A DNA stretch of 51,705 nucleotides from NCBI GenBank assembly GCA_943330915.2, contig CALQJO020000016.1, positions 1-51,705 of the forward strand, given 5' to 3'. The notes under the pieces are model-generated. The model was not told the origin of the DNA and ran no database searches. It saw nothing but the letters and a program-made list of their open reading frames with translations. This stretch comes from Rhodoferax sp. OV413 (GTDB lineage: Bacteria > Pseudomonadota > Gammaproteobacteria > Pseudomonadales > Pseudohongiellaceae). Position numbers and translations under genes: made by a program. Shown piece by piece: positions 3,101-15,732 of this stretch. Each line of letters opens with the position of its first letter. The first letter of the stretch is position 1.

Positions 3101-5416
3101 ATGCTCATGACGAAAACCATAAAATTCATGTTCTGGTTCGGCATCTTCTGCCTGAGCGGGATATTGATGGTGGCATCAGCCGCCTACCTTTACCTGTCCC
3201 CGCAATTGCCCTCCGCCGAGACCTACCGGCAGGTGCAGCTGGAGACGCCGCTGCGCATTCTGACCGCGGATTTGCGACTTATAGAAGAGATTGGCGTACG
3301 CCGAGATCCGATCAGCTACGAGGAAATTCCTCCGATGATGGTCAACGCCGTTATCGCCAGTGAAGATGCGCGCTTTTACTCTCACCCCGGCGTTGATTTC
3401 CGGGGCCTGGTGCGTGGCTTTTACGGATTTGTCCGCGGCGTTAACCTGGGCGGTGGCAGCACCATCACCATGCAGCTCGCCAACAATATTTCGTTCGACA
3501 GCGATAGCGTGTACGCGCGCAAACTCAAGGAGATACCGTTTGCGCTCAGGCTGCAGCAAGAACTTACCAAAGAAGAAATTCTCACGCTTTATCTGAATCT
3601 TGTGTTTTTTGGACAAGGCGCTGAAGGCATCAGCTCAGCAGCGGCGGTTTACTACGGCAAAACAGTTAACCAAATGACCATCGGTGAGATGGCGACCATG
3701 GTGTCTCTGTTGCCATGCCCTTCGGTCTGCAATCCGATCACCGATCCCGAACGCGCGCGGGTTCGACGAGATGTGGTAATCAACAAAATGCTGGCACAAG
3801 GCATGATCACGCATGAGCAACATGCACAGAGCCTGGTGGAGCCGATTAACGCCAGCCGTCACTTGCGCACCATTGAAGTCAATGCCCCCTACGTGGCTGA
3901 AATGGTCAGGCAGCAGTTATATGCCCAGTATGGTGAAGATATCTATCGCCTTGGCATTGAAGTCATCACCTCTATTGACAGCCGGCTGCAAAATGCTGCG
4001 ACATCAGCATTGACGAATGGTCTTGAAAACTATTACGACCGGCGCCACGGATATCGGGGGCCGGAGGCCAGATTGCCAACGTCGGGTGATGACCGGCACG
4101 AACGTTGGTTGAGCGAACTGGCCGTCAGGCCAGATTACGGAAACCATGTTCCCGGCGTCGTTAGCACTGTCAATGATCGTTCCATCGATGTGATGTTACG
4201 AGACGGCTCGACCGTGACCGTCAACTGGTCTGGACTGGAATGGGCCAGACCTTTTATAACGCGCGATAATGCGTGGCCGGTGCCCACACAGGCCTCTGAG
4301 GTTGCGCGCACCGGAGATGTTGTGCGGCTGCGCATAAGTAGCACCGGGGAATGGCAACTTGGGCAAGTACCGGAACTGCAAGGTGCCATCGTTTCAGTCT
4401 CTCCGGACAATGGCGACATCCTGGCTCTGGTGGGCGGATACGACTTTCGCTTCAGCCAGGTAAACCGGGCGATCGCCTCACGGCCGCCAGGTTCGGGCTT
4501 CAAACCTTTCTTATATGGTACTGCGCTTGAAAGCGGATTTACCGCCGCATCGCTGATCAACGATGCACCGTTTTCACGCGGCGACTACCGTCCTCAAAAT
4601 TACGAGCGCAATTTTGTCGGACCCATCACCTTGCGTAACGCCATCAAAGATTCCAGGAACGTGCCAGCCGTGCGCCTGTTTGATCAGCTGGGCTGGGAAA
4701 AGGTGTTTGATTTTGCAGGCCGGTTTGGATTTCGTACCGAGAACTTTCCGCGCAATGACCTGACCATTGCCTTGGGTAGCCAGGACGTACAACCTCTCGA
4801 AATGGCCAGTGCCTACGCCATGATTGCGAATGGCGGCCAACGGATCCAGCCCACGCTGATCAAAAAAATTAAAACGGTGCAGGGTGTGGTTTTTGAAGCA
4901 CAAACGCCCGCGCCTGCAACAGTGACCGATCCCCGCGTCGCCTACATACTCAACACCATGCTGCGCAGTGTGGTTGAGGCCGGCAGTGGCCGACGTATCG
5001 CACGGGAAATTGATCGACGCGATCTGATGGGGAAAACCGGAACCACCAACGGACCGGCGGAACTGTGGTTTACCGGTTTTAATCGCGATATCTCCACCAG
5101 CGTGTTTGTCGGCTTTGATACCCCTGAAGCGCTGGGCGAATCCGAGCAGGGCGCCACGGTTGCTGTCCCTATCTGGATCGACTATATGAAACAGGCACTT
5201 GAAGGACGACCCGAAAACACAATGAGTCGCCCGGACGGATTGGTCGACCGCCTGATCGACCGAGAATCCGGCGAAATCGCCAGACCAGGGCAGGCTGATA
5301 CCATGTTTGAAGTGTTTATGGCCGAGTCAGCGCCTGCAGAATTTCGCAACCAGCAACAACCGCGAACCCCGGATCGGGATAATCAGAACACACTCTCTAC
5401 CGAGATCATATTCTGA
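3101..5416 (+). CDS. mrcA: Penicillin-binding protein 1A (bifunctional peptidoglycan synthase)
   Basis: Class A PBP that polymerises lipid II into glycan strands and cross-links them in the periplasm. One N-terminal membrane anchor (residues ~7-30) is followed by a GT51 transglycosylase domain with the catalytic glutamate in ASEDARFYSHPGVD and the GGSTITMQLANN motif. An OB-like insert comes next, then the transpeptidase domain with the active serine in PGSGFKPF (SxxK), SRN, and KTGTT. At 771 residues it is slightly short for the family. ATG 3107 is an alternative start better placed behind AGGA. It is divergent from pilM and ends in the terminator shared with rpmE. Confidence 0.95.
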   Translation: MLMTKTIKFMFWFGIFCLSGILMVASAAYLYLSPQLPSAETYRQVQLETPLRILTADLRLIEEIGVRRDPISYEEIPPMMVNAVIASEDARFYSHPGVDFRGLVRGFYGFVRGVNLGGGSTITMQLANNISFDSDSVYARKLKEIPFALRLQQELTKEEILTLYLNLVFFGQGAEGISSAAAVYYGKTVNQMTIGEMATMVSLLPCPSVCNPITDPERARVRRDVVINKMLAQGMITHEQHAQSLVEPINASRHLRTIEVNAPYVAEMVRQQLYAQYGEDIYRLGIEVITSIDSRLQNAATSALTNGLENYYDRRHGYRGPEARLPTSGDDRHERWLSELAVRPDYGNHVPGVVSTVNDRSIDVMLRDGSTVTVNWSGLEWARPFITRDNAWPVPTQASEVARTGDVVRLRISSTGEWQLGQVPELQGAIVSVSPDNGDILALVGGYDFRFSQVNRAIASRPPGSGFKPFLYGTALESGFTAASLINDAPFSRGDYRPQNYERNFVGPITLRNAIKDSRNVPAVRLFDQLGWEKVFDFAGRFGFRTENFPRNDLTIALGSQDVQPLEMASAYAMIANGGQRIQPTLIKKIKTVQGVVFEAQTPAPATVTDPRVAYILNTMLRSVVEAGSGRRIAREIDRRDLMGKTGTTNGPAELWFTGFNRDISTSVFVGFDTPEALGESEQGATVAVPIWIDYMKQALEGRPENTMSRPDGLVDRLIDRESGEIARPGQADTMFEVFMAESAPAEFRNQQQPRTPDRDNQNTLSTEIIF

Positions 5417-13269: not shown

Positions 13270-13534
13270 CGTCCGGACGCTTGTTTAGTCTGCGCCCGAG
13301 CTGTGACAAATTGCCGCAGCGCCTTGTAATGCGTCTGCAGGTTGGGATAATCCAGCCAACGATGGCAAGCGTAAAAACGTGACAACGCTGGTGAAAGCAT
13401 TTATGACGGTACCTGCGCTGTTAAGCGCACATTCAGTCAGGTTCGCACACAATAAAATTGAGCTTAATCCGGTCAGATGGGCAAACCGGCATCACCCTTA
13501 GAAGTACACTATCGACGCTCAGGAGAGTATCCGC

Positions 13535-14056
13535 ATGAAACGAACCGATGGATTTAGCCTGGCAACCGCCGCAGCGGCATTGCTGATGTCTGGCTCCGGC
13601 ATGGCAGAGCTCGACGTAAATCAGACCAACCCTGATGACCCTATCAAGATCAGCGTCTGCCAGAATGTCAGTGGCGAAGGGCAAAGCGCTTGCAAAGGTT
13701 TTGGCAATGATGCCGGTGCGGGCGCCAACAGCTGCAGCGCAGTTGGTTTTGTGGCAGTCACCAGCGGCAACGGTGCTTTTTCCGCAGCACTGTGCCAGGT
13801 GCTGGGTGGCACACAGGCCGCGAGCCTGACCGCCAAGCCTGACTTTACGCTGGGCGAAACCGCTGTCAGCGTAACTTACTGCAACGATGTGTTCACCTGC
13901 GCCGGTCTGAGCGCCTGCAAGGGTAATTCCAATGCCGCCTGCGCGGGAAAAAACAGCTGCCACGGCATAGGTTTTGTGGGTGTGTACTCGGGCAGTGAAG
14001 AGCTGTCCAATGCATTGTGTGAAAAACTGGGTGGCAGCGCACTGTCATCCCTTTAA
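13535..14056 (+). CDS. Cys-rich bufferin-like RiPP precursor with two internal repeats
   Basis: Secreted 173-residue protein with a signal peptide (about 1-24, cleavage after GMA). The mature part holds ten Cys: 42, 53, 67, 87 in repeat 1, and 116, 122, 127, 136, 142, 162 in repeat 2. C42/53/67/87 align with C116/127/142/162 at spacings 11/14/20 and 11/15/20. Each repeat contains ACKG, NSC, GFV and a final LC-x-x-LGG. Next to a DUF692 oxidase and a DUF2063 protein this is the layout of bufferins, periplasmic copper-binding peptides whose Cys are oxidised to thiooxazoles. It lacks the CYGIAKAG signature I associate with DUF2282 precursors and is closer to the CKG-x-N-x-C type. AGGAGAG precedes the ATG. 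The modification and metal are inferred. Confidence 0.75.
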   Translation: MKRTDGFSLATAAAALLMSGSGMAELDVNQTNPDDPIKISVCQNVSGEGQSACKGFGNDAGAGANSCSAVGFVAVTSGNGAFSAALCQVLGGTQAASLTAKPDFTLGETAVSVTYCNDVFTCAGLSACKGNSNAACAGKNSCHGIGFVGVYSGSEELSNALCEKLGGSALSSL

Positions 14057-14068
14057 TCAGGTGTGAGC

Positions 14069-14917
14069 ATGCTCGGATTCGGGCTGGGACTGCGCAGTCA
14101 ACACTATGACTATGTGCTGGAGCATCAGCCGGCGGTAGACTGGTTTGAACTGATCACAGAGAACTATCTGGCGCCTGGCGGGCGTCCCCGTGCCATCTTG
14201 CATAAAATCCGAGCGCACTACCCCGTAGTGCTGCACGGATTGTCGTTTAACATCGGCAGCAACGAAGCGCCGGATCTGCATTATCTCGCACAGCTCAAAG
14301 CCCTGATCAACGACATACAACCGGCCTGGGTATCCGATCACATCTGCTGGACTGGCCTGCACGGCAAGACCTCTCATGACCTGCTGCCAATAGCCTATAA
14401 CCCTGAAACATTGTCTCAGGTGGCAGACAAGGTCAACCGCATTCAGGATGCGCTGCAGCAGCGCATTGTGCTGGAGAATCCCTCTGTCTATCTGCAGTTT
14501 CGCTCCGCGAGCATGAGTGAACCTGACTTCATCAATTCGCTGACCGTGCAAACCGGCTGTCGCATCCTGCTGGATGTCAATAACGTTTACGTCAGTTGTT
14601 TTAATCTGGGCCAGGATCCTTACGCCCATATCTGCGCGCTGAAACACAACAGTGTTCAACAGTTCCATCTGGCCGGGCATACCCACAACGGCAACCACAT
14701 TATCGACACCCATGACCACCCGGTCAGTGATGCGGTATGGGAGCTCTATGCGCACGCCTGCCGACACTTTGGTGAAACCGCCACTTTACTGGAGCGCGAT
14801 GATCATATTCCGCCATTCCCTGAGTTAATGGCTGAACTTGAGCTGGCGCGCCAGAAACAGCAACAAGCACTGGCAGTAACGCCGACACAGGGCGTTCTGC
14901 AGGGGACCGTGGCGTGA
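14069..14917 (+). CDS. bufB: DUF692 multinuclear non-heme iron oxidase (MNIO, BufB-like)
   Basis: TIM-barrel oxidase that modifies cysteines in RiPP precursors (relatives: MbnB, TglH, BufB). The product is 282 residues beginning MLGFGLGLR. Likely metal ligands are in DWFELITENYL, VVLHGLSFNIGS, WVSDHICW, VLENPS, LLDVNNVYVS, FHLAGHTHNG, DTHDHPV and LLERDDHIPPF, all family signatures. AGGTG precedes ATG 14069, which I prefer over GTG 14063. It lies 12 bases after the precursor gene and overlaps the DUF2063 start by four bases, so the three form one operon. The natural substrate is inferred to be the 13535 product. Confidence 0.93.
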   Translation: MLGFGLGLRSQHYDYVLEHQPAVDWFELITENYLAPGGRPRAILHKIRAHYPVVLHGLSFNIGSNEAPDLHYLAQLKALINDIQPAWVSDHICWTGLHGKTSHDLLPIAYNPETLSQVADKVNRIQDALQQRIVLENPSVYLQFRSASMSEPDFINSLTVQTGCRILLDVNNVYVSCFNLGQDPYAHICALKHNSVQQFHLAGHTHNGNHIIDTHDHPVSDAVWELYAHACRHFGETATLLERDDHIPPFPELMAELELARQKQQQALAVTPTQGVLQGTVA

Positions 14918-15732
14918 ATTGGCAACAGGAGCAGCAGGCTTTCTGGGAATGGATGACCCGCCCGCAGGACCTGCGCCTCAGTGCTGATGCCATCGATGCC
15001 CTCATGGCGCCGCATCAGGCGCTGAGTCAGGTAGAAGCGCTGGCTATCTACAATAACGCCTATCATCAGCGACTGATCCAGATATCCTCTGAACTTTACC
15101 CGGTGCTGTATCACACACTGGGCGATGACGTGTATACGCGGCTGTGGCTGGAGTACATCGCGCAGCATCCCCCCAGACCAGGACCCATGGGCCTGCTCGG
15201 AGAACATCTGCTGGAATTTGCCAGACAACATGCTCAATTTGGTCAACTGCCAGCCTTGCTGGATATTATTGAACTGGAAAGTCTGCTGATCAGCCTGTTC
15301 GACACTGCTGACGAGTTGCCATTAACACGACAGATGCTGCAATCCTTGCCGGCTGATCAATGGCCTGAGATGTGCTGGTTACCCAGGCAGGACTGGGCAC
15401 TGATGGATAGCCGCTATGATATGGAAGCTTACTGGCTGTTGATGCAGACACATCTGGCGAAGGAGAACGCGGTTGCGGGCGAAACCGGATTTGCAGTTCC
15501 CCTTCACGCGCCTGAACAGACCGCTTTTTATGTGGTACGACGTGTTAACCATCGCATGCAGTTTCAACGCATCAACCAGGCGATGATGGTATTTCTGCTG
15601 GCCATACAACAACGGGTTTGTTTTGCCGGGCAATGCGAGCAACTGGCAGAGCAATTCCCGCAGGAAGATATTGCACAACTGAGCCTGACACTGCTGCTGA
15701 AGAGCATTGATCTGCAACTGATCCGGGCCTGA
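14914..15732 (+). CDS. bufC: DUF2063 partner protein (BufC-like precursor recognition protein)
   Basis: A 272-residue protein with the DUF2063 N-terminal domain: LSQVEALAIYNNAYHQRL, then SSELYPVLYHTLGDD, LEYIAQHPPRPG and LLEFARQH. DUF2063 proteins accompany DUF692 oxidases and are thought to present the precursor peptide. The C-terminal half (PLHAPEQTAFYVVRRVNHRMQF region, then a helical end) resembles the second domain seen in some family members. The start is GTG in the overlap GTGA with the oxidase stop, showing translational coupling. It converges on the OsmC gene with 20 bases between. Confidence 0.88.
   Translation: MNWQQEQQAFWEWMTRPQDLRLSADAIDALMAPHQALSQVEALAIYNNAYHQRLIQISSELYPVLYHTLGDDVYTRLWLEYIAQHPPRPGPMGLLGEHLLEFARQHAQFGQLPALLDIIELESLLISLFDTADELPLTRQMLQSLPADQWPEMCWLPRQDWALMDSRYDMEAYWLLMQTHLAKENAVAGETGFAVPLHAPEQTAFYVVRRVNHRMQFQRINQAMMVFLLAIQQRVCFAGQCEQLAEQFPQEDIAQLSLTLLLKSIDLQLIRA

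What the first reader, a model, noticed from the sequence alone, without database searches (positions are those of the whole stretch)
13535..15732. Bufferin-like RiPP operon whose precursor contains two tandem Cys-rich repeats
The precursor's ten Cys fall into two blocks with almost the same spacing (11/14/20 and 11/15/20) about 74 residues apart, each ending LC-x-x-LGG. Repeat 2 has two extra Cys (122, 136). Known bufferin precursors, as I recall them, are single-module; a duplicated, asymmetric precursor next to its DUF692 oxidase and DUF2063 partner could carry two modified copper-binding modules of different capacity. The genes are tightly coupled (12-base gap and 4-base overlap). Copper binding and thiooxazole formation are inferred from the family.
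Basis: partly seen in the sequence, partly recalled or inferred. Interest (0 to 1): 0.72.

Follow-up and report, generated by a model that had tools for sequence, protein, structure and literature searches.

The report
Bufferin precursor with fading first module
A marine bacterium makes a probable copper-binding peptide from a precursor with two copies of one module; across its relatives the first copy keeps losing the cysteines that would be modified but is not itself lost, which suggests it has become a structural or helper part.

Summary
A bufABC operon (13535-15732) encodes a 173-aa BufA2-like precursor (10 Cys, two homologous modules, 28 of 58 positions identical), a BufB-type MNIO (DUF692) and a DUF2063 partner. 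The genome belongs with Pseudohongiella. Two-module Buf2 precursors are not new: 12-Cys duplicates are published, and all 17 two-module loci I fetched outside this family are symmetric 6+6. What is unusual is the asymmetry. In 29 genomes (window included), module 1 keeps its first and last Cys (29/29, the pair expected to form a disulfide) but loses inner, modifiable ones: C2 in 9/29, C3 21/29, C4 0/29, C5 17/29; the whole core loop is gone in 8/29, probably by at least two losses. Module 2 keeps almost all six. Yet the module 1 scaffold is as constrained as module 2's (dN/dS 0.02 each; 0.03 in loop-less pairs), and all 29 retain it. Best reading: module 2 is the thiooxazole/copper module; module 1 is a decommissioned bufferin domain kept for another job (docking BufB-BufC, pseudo-dimer partner, or a periplasmic role). 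No chemistry was tested. New variant of a known kind.

The parts
13469..13489 (.). short inverted repeat CCGGT-N11-ACCGG upstream of bufA; possible operator, unproven
   Evidence: read; similar arms (not always perfect) in five of the six relatives aligned, not in L070; folds no better than shuffles
13521..13526 (+). Shine-Dalgarno-like AGGAGA before bufA
   Evidence: sequence; AGGAGA kept in the seven aligned upstream regions
13535..14056 (+). bufA: two-module BufA2-like precursor, 173 aa, 10 Cys
   Evidence: NF050166 E 3.6e-12 over two stretches, 46.3 bits, under the cut-off of 60
13535..13606 (+). probable Sec signal peptide (residues 1-24)
   Evidence: K/R then hydrophobic stretch ending SGMA, by eye; dN/dS 0.05; helix 3-18 in a low-confidence model; no signal-peptide program run
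13640..13816 (+). module 1 (residues 36-94): 4 Cys (42, 53, 67, 87) = C1, C3, C5, C6 of the six-Cys module
13667..13744 (+). module 1 core loop (residues 45-70), holding C53-K54 and C67; relaxed in the family and deleted in 8 of 29 genomes
13862..14041 (+). module 2 (residues 110-169): complete six-Cys Buf2-type module
13889..13969 (+). module 2 core (residues 119-145) with Cys 122, 128, 136, 142, the expected thiooxazole sites
   Evidence: dN/dS 0.01; chemistry inferred
14069..14917 (+). bufB: MNIO (DUF692) maturase with ERDD as in BufA2-associated enzymes
   Evidence: PF05114 E 1.2e-101, NF050167 352 bits against a cut-off of 310; ERDD in 29 of 29; Phe in that column in 3bww
14914..15732 (+). 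bufC: DUF2063 partner (PME type 1)
   Evidence: PF09836 48.9 bits against a cut-off of 27.2

Best explanation
This is a bufferin-2-like (captophorin) operon. BufA is exported after BufB, guided by BufC, oxidises cysteines of its core to copper-binding 5-thiooxazoles. BufA arose by a duplication that looks peculiar to Pseudohongiellaceae. Module 2 is the working copper module: C116-C162 make the structural disulfide, and C122, C128, C136 and C142 are the sites modified. Module 1 (36-94) is a decommissioned bufferin domain: its outer pair C42-C87 and its strand-strand-helix-strand scaffold are kept, while its modification loop is decaying (two of four inner Cys left here, none in eight relatives). 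It is kept for a role that needs no modified Cys, most likely as a folded docking or pseudo-dimer partner for module 2 or for the BufB-BufC complex. SHOWN by sequence: operon, homologies, duplication, Cys loss pattern, constraint on the module 1 scaffold. INFERRED from the family: thiooxazoles, disulfides, copper, which Cys are modified. INFERRED only: what module 1 does.
For: bufB over its curated cut-off and bufC a DUF2063 protein. Cys tally in 29 genomes, window included: module 1 C1 29, C2 9, C3 21, C4 0, C5 17, C6 29; module 2 C1 29, C2 28, C3 28, C4 26, C5 29, C6 29. Core loop deleted in 8 of 29; one single clade of all eight rejected (AU p 2.5e-54; tree needs 4 changes, at least 2 forced by starred branches). 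dN/dS in 11 pairs: module 1 scaffold 0.02, module 2 scaffold 0.02, module 1 core 0.10, module 2 core 0.01, BufB 0.09; three loop-deleted pairs, module 1 scaffold 0.03; module 1 core against module 2 core p 5e-8, module 1 scaffold against linkers p 5e-7. Module 1 scaffold present in 29 of 29. The loop lies between strands 1 and 2 in both models. In Buf1 the first and last Cys form the disulfide and the central ones are modified (PMC12452194 Fig. 3 legend, read). BufB signature: ERDD in 29 of 29 here and 18 of 19 canonical BufA2 loci, 0 of 15 loci of weaker, mostly Buf1-like hits.
Against: No chemistry, copper binding or expression data. The window's module 1 still has C53-K54 (Cys-Lys motif) and C67, so it may be partly modified. 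NF050166 is hit below its equivalog cut-off. Both AF2 models are of low confidence (mean pLDDT 47.0 and 54.7), so the module 1 fold and any module 1-module 2 contact are weak. The Cys role assignment for Buf2 is carried over from Buf1. The constraint tests rest on few pairs, not all on strictly separate branches. Losing module 2 Cys also occurs: C4 is Gly in 3 of 29, and G014 lacks C2-C3. One fragmentary BufA-like ORF (L078) lacks the start of module 1 and was left out.
Confidence: 0.68

Rival explanations
1. Both modules are modified and bind copper in this species (2 sites in module 1, 4 in module 2); the family simply tolerates variable capacity.
For: C53-K54 and C67 remain in module 1, and BufB keeps the Asp of BufA2-type enzymes. 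In an EGKCG precursor of a related system all six Cys of three cassettes were modified (PMC12538549 section 9).
Against: The module 1 core changes about nine times more often at non-synonymous sites than the module 2 core; C4 is gone in all 29 genomes and the whole loop in 8, while the module 1 scaffold stays as constrained. Capacity alone does not explain that.
Confidence: 0.2
2. Module 1 is a relic on its way out: a duplicate losing function, with no present role.
For: Loss of inner Cys in several lineages and of the whole loop in eight genomes.
Against: Module 1 scaffold dN/dS 0.02-0.03, also where the loop is gone, well below the linkers (p 5e-7 overall; p 0.018 in the three loop-deleted pairs) and below BufB (p 3e-11). 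The scaffold is present in 29 of 29.
Confidence: 0.05
3. The asymmetric precursor is a degenerate branch of the known 12-Cys two-module Buf2 family (one shared duplication).
For: Two modules of the same six-Cys type.
Against: Modules 1 and 2 of this family group together (100/99) against all canonical modules; holding module 1 with canonical module 1 is rejected (AU p 0.016), and module 2 with canonical module 2 (p 0.003). Module offset 74-75 in the window, 61-62 in 17 of 17 canonical ones. Only 49 columns, and gene conversion could mimic this.
Confidence: 0.15

Closest known systems
Buf2 / BufA2 bufferins (Buf_6/12Cys; NF050166), including 12-Cys two-module members such as Cognaticolwellia WP_077285100
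   Same: bufABC order, N-terminal signal-like sequence, six-Cys module with CxG motifs and a final C-x-x-x-GG, BufB-type MNIO with ERDD, DUF2063 partner; duplication known in the roughly 10% of Buf2 that have 12 Cys (PMC12452194)
   Different: NF050166 score under the cut-off; modules 74-75 residues apart instead of 61-62; module 1 has 4 Cys here and 2-5 across the family, against 6+6 in 17 of 17 canonical two-module loci; duplication probably independent
Buf1 bufferins (DUF2282, PF10048)
   Same: outer Cys pair as disulfide, inner Cys modified (published; read); related MNIO and partner
   Different: P0001 gives no Pfam match; the genome has no DUF2282 match; the BufB of Buf1-like loci lack ERDD (0 of 15)
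EGKCG captophorins (fontiphorin, oxazolin, bulbicupramide)
   Same: MNIO plus DUF2063 partner; 5-thiooxazoles and copper (PMC13097082, abstract and sections read)
   Different: Lys-Cys repeats instead of six-Cys modules with Cys-Lys motifs; FonB has Phe250 where the BufB here has Asp (position assigned through 3bww, which aligns with ERDF; FonB itself not aligned)

Membership tests
BufA2 equivalog, NF050166 | score at or above the curated cut-off of 60 bits | tested here: not met
   46.3 bits, E 3.6e-12. Homologous, but filed as a divergent BufA2-like relative, not as an equivalog.
Buf2 (Buf_6/12Cys) bufferins | 6 conserved Cys per module, 6 or 12 in all | tested here: not met
   module 2 has 6, module 1 has 4; 10 in all
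Buf2 bufferins | gene order bufA-bufB-bufC with MNIO and DUF2063 | tested here: met
   matches to all three in this order in 28 of 29 loci of relatives (L078 is the exception)
Buf2 bufferins | Sec signal peptide | tested here: inconclusive
   typical n- and h-regions and SGMA site by eye, helix 3-18 in a low-confidence model; no signal-peptide predictor available
Cys-Lys captophorins (BufA2 type) | multiple Cys-Lys motifs in the precursor | tested here: met
   C53-K54 and C128-K129 in the window; at least one Cys-Lys in 28 of 29, none in G014; criterion from PMC13097082 section 7
Cys-Lys captophorins (BufA2 type) | Asp instead of Phe after the catalytic Asp of the MNIO | tested here: met
   ERDD in 29 of 29; aligned 3bww has ERDF; 18 of 19 canonical BufA2 loci have ERDD, 0 of 15 weaker-hit, mostly Buf1-like loci. 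Criterion from PMC13097082 section 14; FonB itself was not aligned.
BufB maturase, NF050167 | score at or above 310 bits | tested here: met
   352 bits
PME type 1 partner | DUF2063 domain plus RRE domain | tested here: inconclusive
   DUF2063 48.9 against 27.2 bits, met; NGO1945_C 23.8 against 27, just under
bufferins / captophorins | 5-thiooxazoles from Cys, and copper binding | not testable with these tools
   needs mass spectrometry and metal-binding assays
DUF2282 (Buf1) | PF10048 match | tested here: not met
   no Pfam match for P0001 at E up to 10; none in the genome

The most novel reading that the evidence does not exclude
A duplicated RiPP core domain has been converted into an unmodified, disulfide-locked helper domain inside its own precursor: a folded pseudo-substrate that docks the MNIO-partner complex (or pairs with the working module) and lets module 2 be modified or bind copper. 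That would be a built-in leader domain derived from the core itself.
Probability: 0.35. Interest if true: 0.7.

Novelty: new variant of a known kind. Interest (0 to 1): 0.46.

Why it matters
How the MNIO-partner complex recognises precursors is described for methanobactin and pearlin but, in the paper I read, only preliminary for bufferins (PMC12452194 Discussion). A family in which one of two modules has shed its modification sites, up to complete loop deletion, while its scaffold stays under strong selection separates 'needed to be recognised or folded' from 'needed to be modified'. It gives ready-made natural variants (5+6, 4+6, 3+6, 2+6 Cys) for testing what each module does.

Tried and rejected
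Solved structures: no sequence match for bufA; bufB matches MNIO structures such as 3bww, 8hci and 7dz9. Foldseek on the better model gave no hit with E under 0.001 (best E 0.81), as expected from its low confidence; no fold assignment was taken from it. The upstream inverted repeat folds no better than shuffles (z +0.88). Promoter-like sites: 4 against 1.6 +/- 1.5 in shuffles; terminator-like: 3 against 2.3 +/- 1.9; no regulatory claim. A second bufferin in the genome: none found (NF050166, DUF2282). Single origin of the eight loop deletions: rejected; a single origin of the four outside genus code g6 is not rejected (p 0.085). The tree count cannot tell gain from loss. Loop regained by conversion from module 2 instead of lost: considered; the module 1 loops of g1 and g6 share features that module 2 lacks (such as AGAG in place of the C4 region), which favours common descent and loss, but this was judged by eye.

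Dropped rows: L078, a 125-aa ORF whose first part does not match the family and whose 5 kb upstream shows neither ubiE nor ubiJ, was left out of the tallies and trees. Prior reports of degenerate modules: none seen in term finds in the main text of PMC12452194 and PMC13097082 or in the listings of full-text searches (one search was swamped by the word buffering). Supplements could not be read, and the original bufferin paper did not appear in these listings, so 'not reported' is limited to what was searched.

Full report
OBSERVATION. BufA is 173 aa with Cys at 42, 53, 67, 87, 116, 122, 128, 136, 142 and 162. Modules 1 and 2 align with 28 of 58 positions identical; score 132, against a mean of 33.8 and a maximum of 63 in 2000 shuffles.

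IDENTITY OF THE OPERON. BufB matches PF05114 (E 1.2e-101) and NF050167 MNIO_BufB above its cut-off (352 against 310 bits); BufC matches DUF2063. BufA has no Pfam match and matches NF050166 Cu_RiPP_BufA2 at 46.3 bits in two stretches, below the cut-off of 60. PMC13097082 section 14 reports Asp in place of Phe next to the catalytic Asp in enzymes of Cys-Lys precursors, BufA2 included. The BufB here reads ERDD where 3bww reads ERDF; ERDD occurs in 29 of 29 family members, in 18 of 19 canonical BufA2 loci (L105 has ERDA) and in 0 of 15 loci with weaker, mostly Buf1-like hits (best BufB match per locus; L102 and L112 had none). FonB itself was not aligned.

THE ORGANISM. The genome (2.89 Mb, 96.7% complete) has one MNIO, no other BufA2 match and no DUF2282. 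The nearest relatives of BufA in named records are labelled Pseudohongiella or Gammaproteobacteria, such as LSUCC0112 at 95%. Two 'same genus' genomes, G002 and G008, have contigs of the same lengths as Pseudohongiella nitratireducens SCS-49 and Pseudohongiella sp. O18, so the genus is taken to be Pseudohongiella.

WHAT IS KNOWN. Full-text searches led to PMC12452194 (abstract, sections 13, 14, 18, 21 and passages read) and PMC13097082 (abstract, sections 7, 12, 13, 14 and passages read); of PMC12538549 I read the abstract and part 1 of section 9. Section 14 of PMC12452194 states that Buf2 precursors have 6 Cys in 90% of cases and 12 in the rest; [quoted passage not shown] Two-module bufferins are therefore known. 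The Fig. 3 legend says that in Buf1 the central Cys are modified and the first and last form a disulfide. [quoted passage not shown]

SURVEY OUTSIDE THE FAMILY. NF050166 searches covered 390 genomes of the order (E up to 1e-3), 369 of the class and 398 of the phylum (E up to 1e-6) (57, 73 and 34 genomes matched; samples overlap). I fetched all 17 loci, in 15 genomes, whose hit tables showed two modules with the second spanning about profile positions 27-78: all 17 are 6+6, with modules 61-62 residues apart; 15 of 17 carry a thirteenth Cys in the signal region. This choice favours intact modules, because both had to score. As a partial check, of the loci with long frames fetched, those printed show by eye no degenerate second module; two genomes (G851, G862) have enlarged cores instead. 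Many hits with short frames were not fetched. Under-cut-off hits of the order set that I could read (output cut in the middle) were mostly four-Cys Buf1-like proteins.

THE FAMILY OF THE WINDOW. A BufA search found matches in 15 of 15 genomes of the genus and 29 of 137 of the family, both counts including the window's (genus codes g1, g5, g6). ubiE- and ubiJ-like genes lie upstream in 26 of 29 loci of relatives; L081 and L088 do not reach that far, L078 does and lacks them. An osmC-like gene follows in the g1 loci (gene names are recalled and were not tested against a family library). This is consistent with vertical inheritance. Tally over 29: module 1 C1 29, C2 9, C3 21, C4 0, C5 17, C6 29; module 2 C1 29, C2 28, C3 28, C4 26, C5 29, C6 29. 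Eight genomes (G003, G008, G014, G033, G035, G044, G045, G047) have lost the whole module 1 core loop and keep only C1 and C6 there. G014 has also lost 14 residues of the module 2 core (C2-C3 as aligned; the gap placement is ambiguous), and G009, G002 and G040 have Gly for C4 of module 2. Some rows are near-copies, for example G003/G008 and G010/G011.

HISTORY. On a BufB+BufC tree of the 29 (604 columns) the loop deletion needs 4 changes, of which starred branches force at least 2; the eight deletions as one clade are rejected (AU p 2.5e-54). The four outside g6 as one clade are not rejected (p 0.085). On a module tree (63 rows, 49 columns) modules 1 and 2 of the family group together (100/99), and a shared duplication with the canonical two-module proteins is rejected (p 0.016 and 0.003). 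That tree used 9 of the 29 family members and is short.

SELECTION. Over 11 pairs of close relatives (Nei-Gojobori; pairs not all on strictly separate branches) dN/dS is: signal region 0.05, N-terminal linker 0.09, module 1 scaffold 0.02, module 1 core 0.10, linker 95-110 0.08, module 2 scaffold 0.02, module 2 core 0.01, BufB 0.09. In the three loop-deleted pairs module 1 scaffold is 0.03 and module 2 scaffold 0.04. Fisher tests on rounded counts: module 1 core against module 2 core p 5e-8; module 1 scaffold against linkers p 5e-7; against BufB p 3e-11; against module 2 scaffold p 0.60; in loop-deleted pairs against linkers p 0.018. Over all pairs dS is 0.44-0.64 in every segment, so the low dN is not a local mutation effect; within the small subsets dS varies more.

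STRUCTURE. AF2 on 26 sequences gave weak models: window 47.0 mean pLDDT, loop-deleted Pseudohongiella O18 54.7, with module 1 blocks at about 53-78. Both give each module strand-strand-helix-strand, with the core loop between strands 1 and 2, C1 in strand 1 and C6 in the helix. In O18, module 1 closes this gap as a short hairpin. I take this only as a consistent picture.

MECHANISM. Module 2 carries what an ordinary Buf2 module has and is nearly invariant: it is the likely modified copper module. Module 1 has the opposite profile: outer pair and scaffold fixed, modification sites free to vanish. A useless relic should lose scaffold and module as well, which 29 of 29 have not done. A module kept for copper capacity should keep its sites. 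A retained non-modified function fits best. The published preliminary indication, for Buf1, that the signal peptide is part of what BufB-BufC recognises (PMC12452194 Discussion) and the strong constraint on the signal region here make a recognition role for the N-terminal half plausible; a pseudo-dimer or a periplasmic partner role is equally open.

VERDICT. A real and conserved feature; its general kind (two-module bufferin) is published; the decommissioned first module is the new part, seen here by sequence only.

Noticed in passing
L130 (G014) bufA at 3906-4391: A genome in one contig has lost the module 1 core loop and also 14 residues of the module 2 core with the Cys-Lys motif, leaving no Cys-Lys in the precursor, while bufB and bufC match over full length.
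   Followed up: partly
L086 (record titled MAG: Klebsiella pneumoniae isolate ZE-13nov19-95): Its BufB groups firmly inside the window's family with ubiE-ubiJ-like genes upstream; the species label of this record looks wrong.
   Followed up: partly
L128 (G033) bufA at 4009-4482: The signal region ends LMLTGCGG, a lipobox-like site, unlike the other family members; 15 of 17 canonical two-module BufA2 also have a Cys there.
   Followed up: no
L217 (G851) 1275-1613 and L218 (G862) 2325-2759: BufA2-like precursors with an enlarged core (10 and 13 Cys in all) instead of a second module: the opposite trend to the window's family.
   Followed up: no
L210, L212, L213, L214, L215: Proteins of about 230-245 aa with hydrophobic N-terminal segments and a C-terminal BufA2-like module, resembling the published MerC-Buf2 fusions (MerC not tested here).
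   Followed up: no
window 13469-13489: Inverted repeat CCGGT-N11-ACCGG upstream of bufA, similar in five of six aligned relatives; possible operator.
   Followed up: partly
L078: A 125-aa bufA-like ORF whose start does not match the family and whose upstream 5 kb lacks the usual neighbours; perhaps an assembly join or a rearrangement. Left out.
   Followed up: no
L105 (G190) bufB: A canonical two-module BufA2 locus whose BufB reads ERDA instead of ERDD, the only exception among 19.
   Followed up: no
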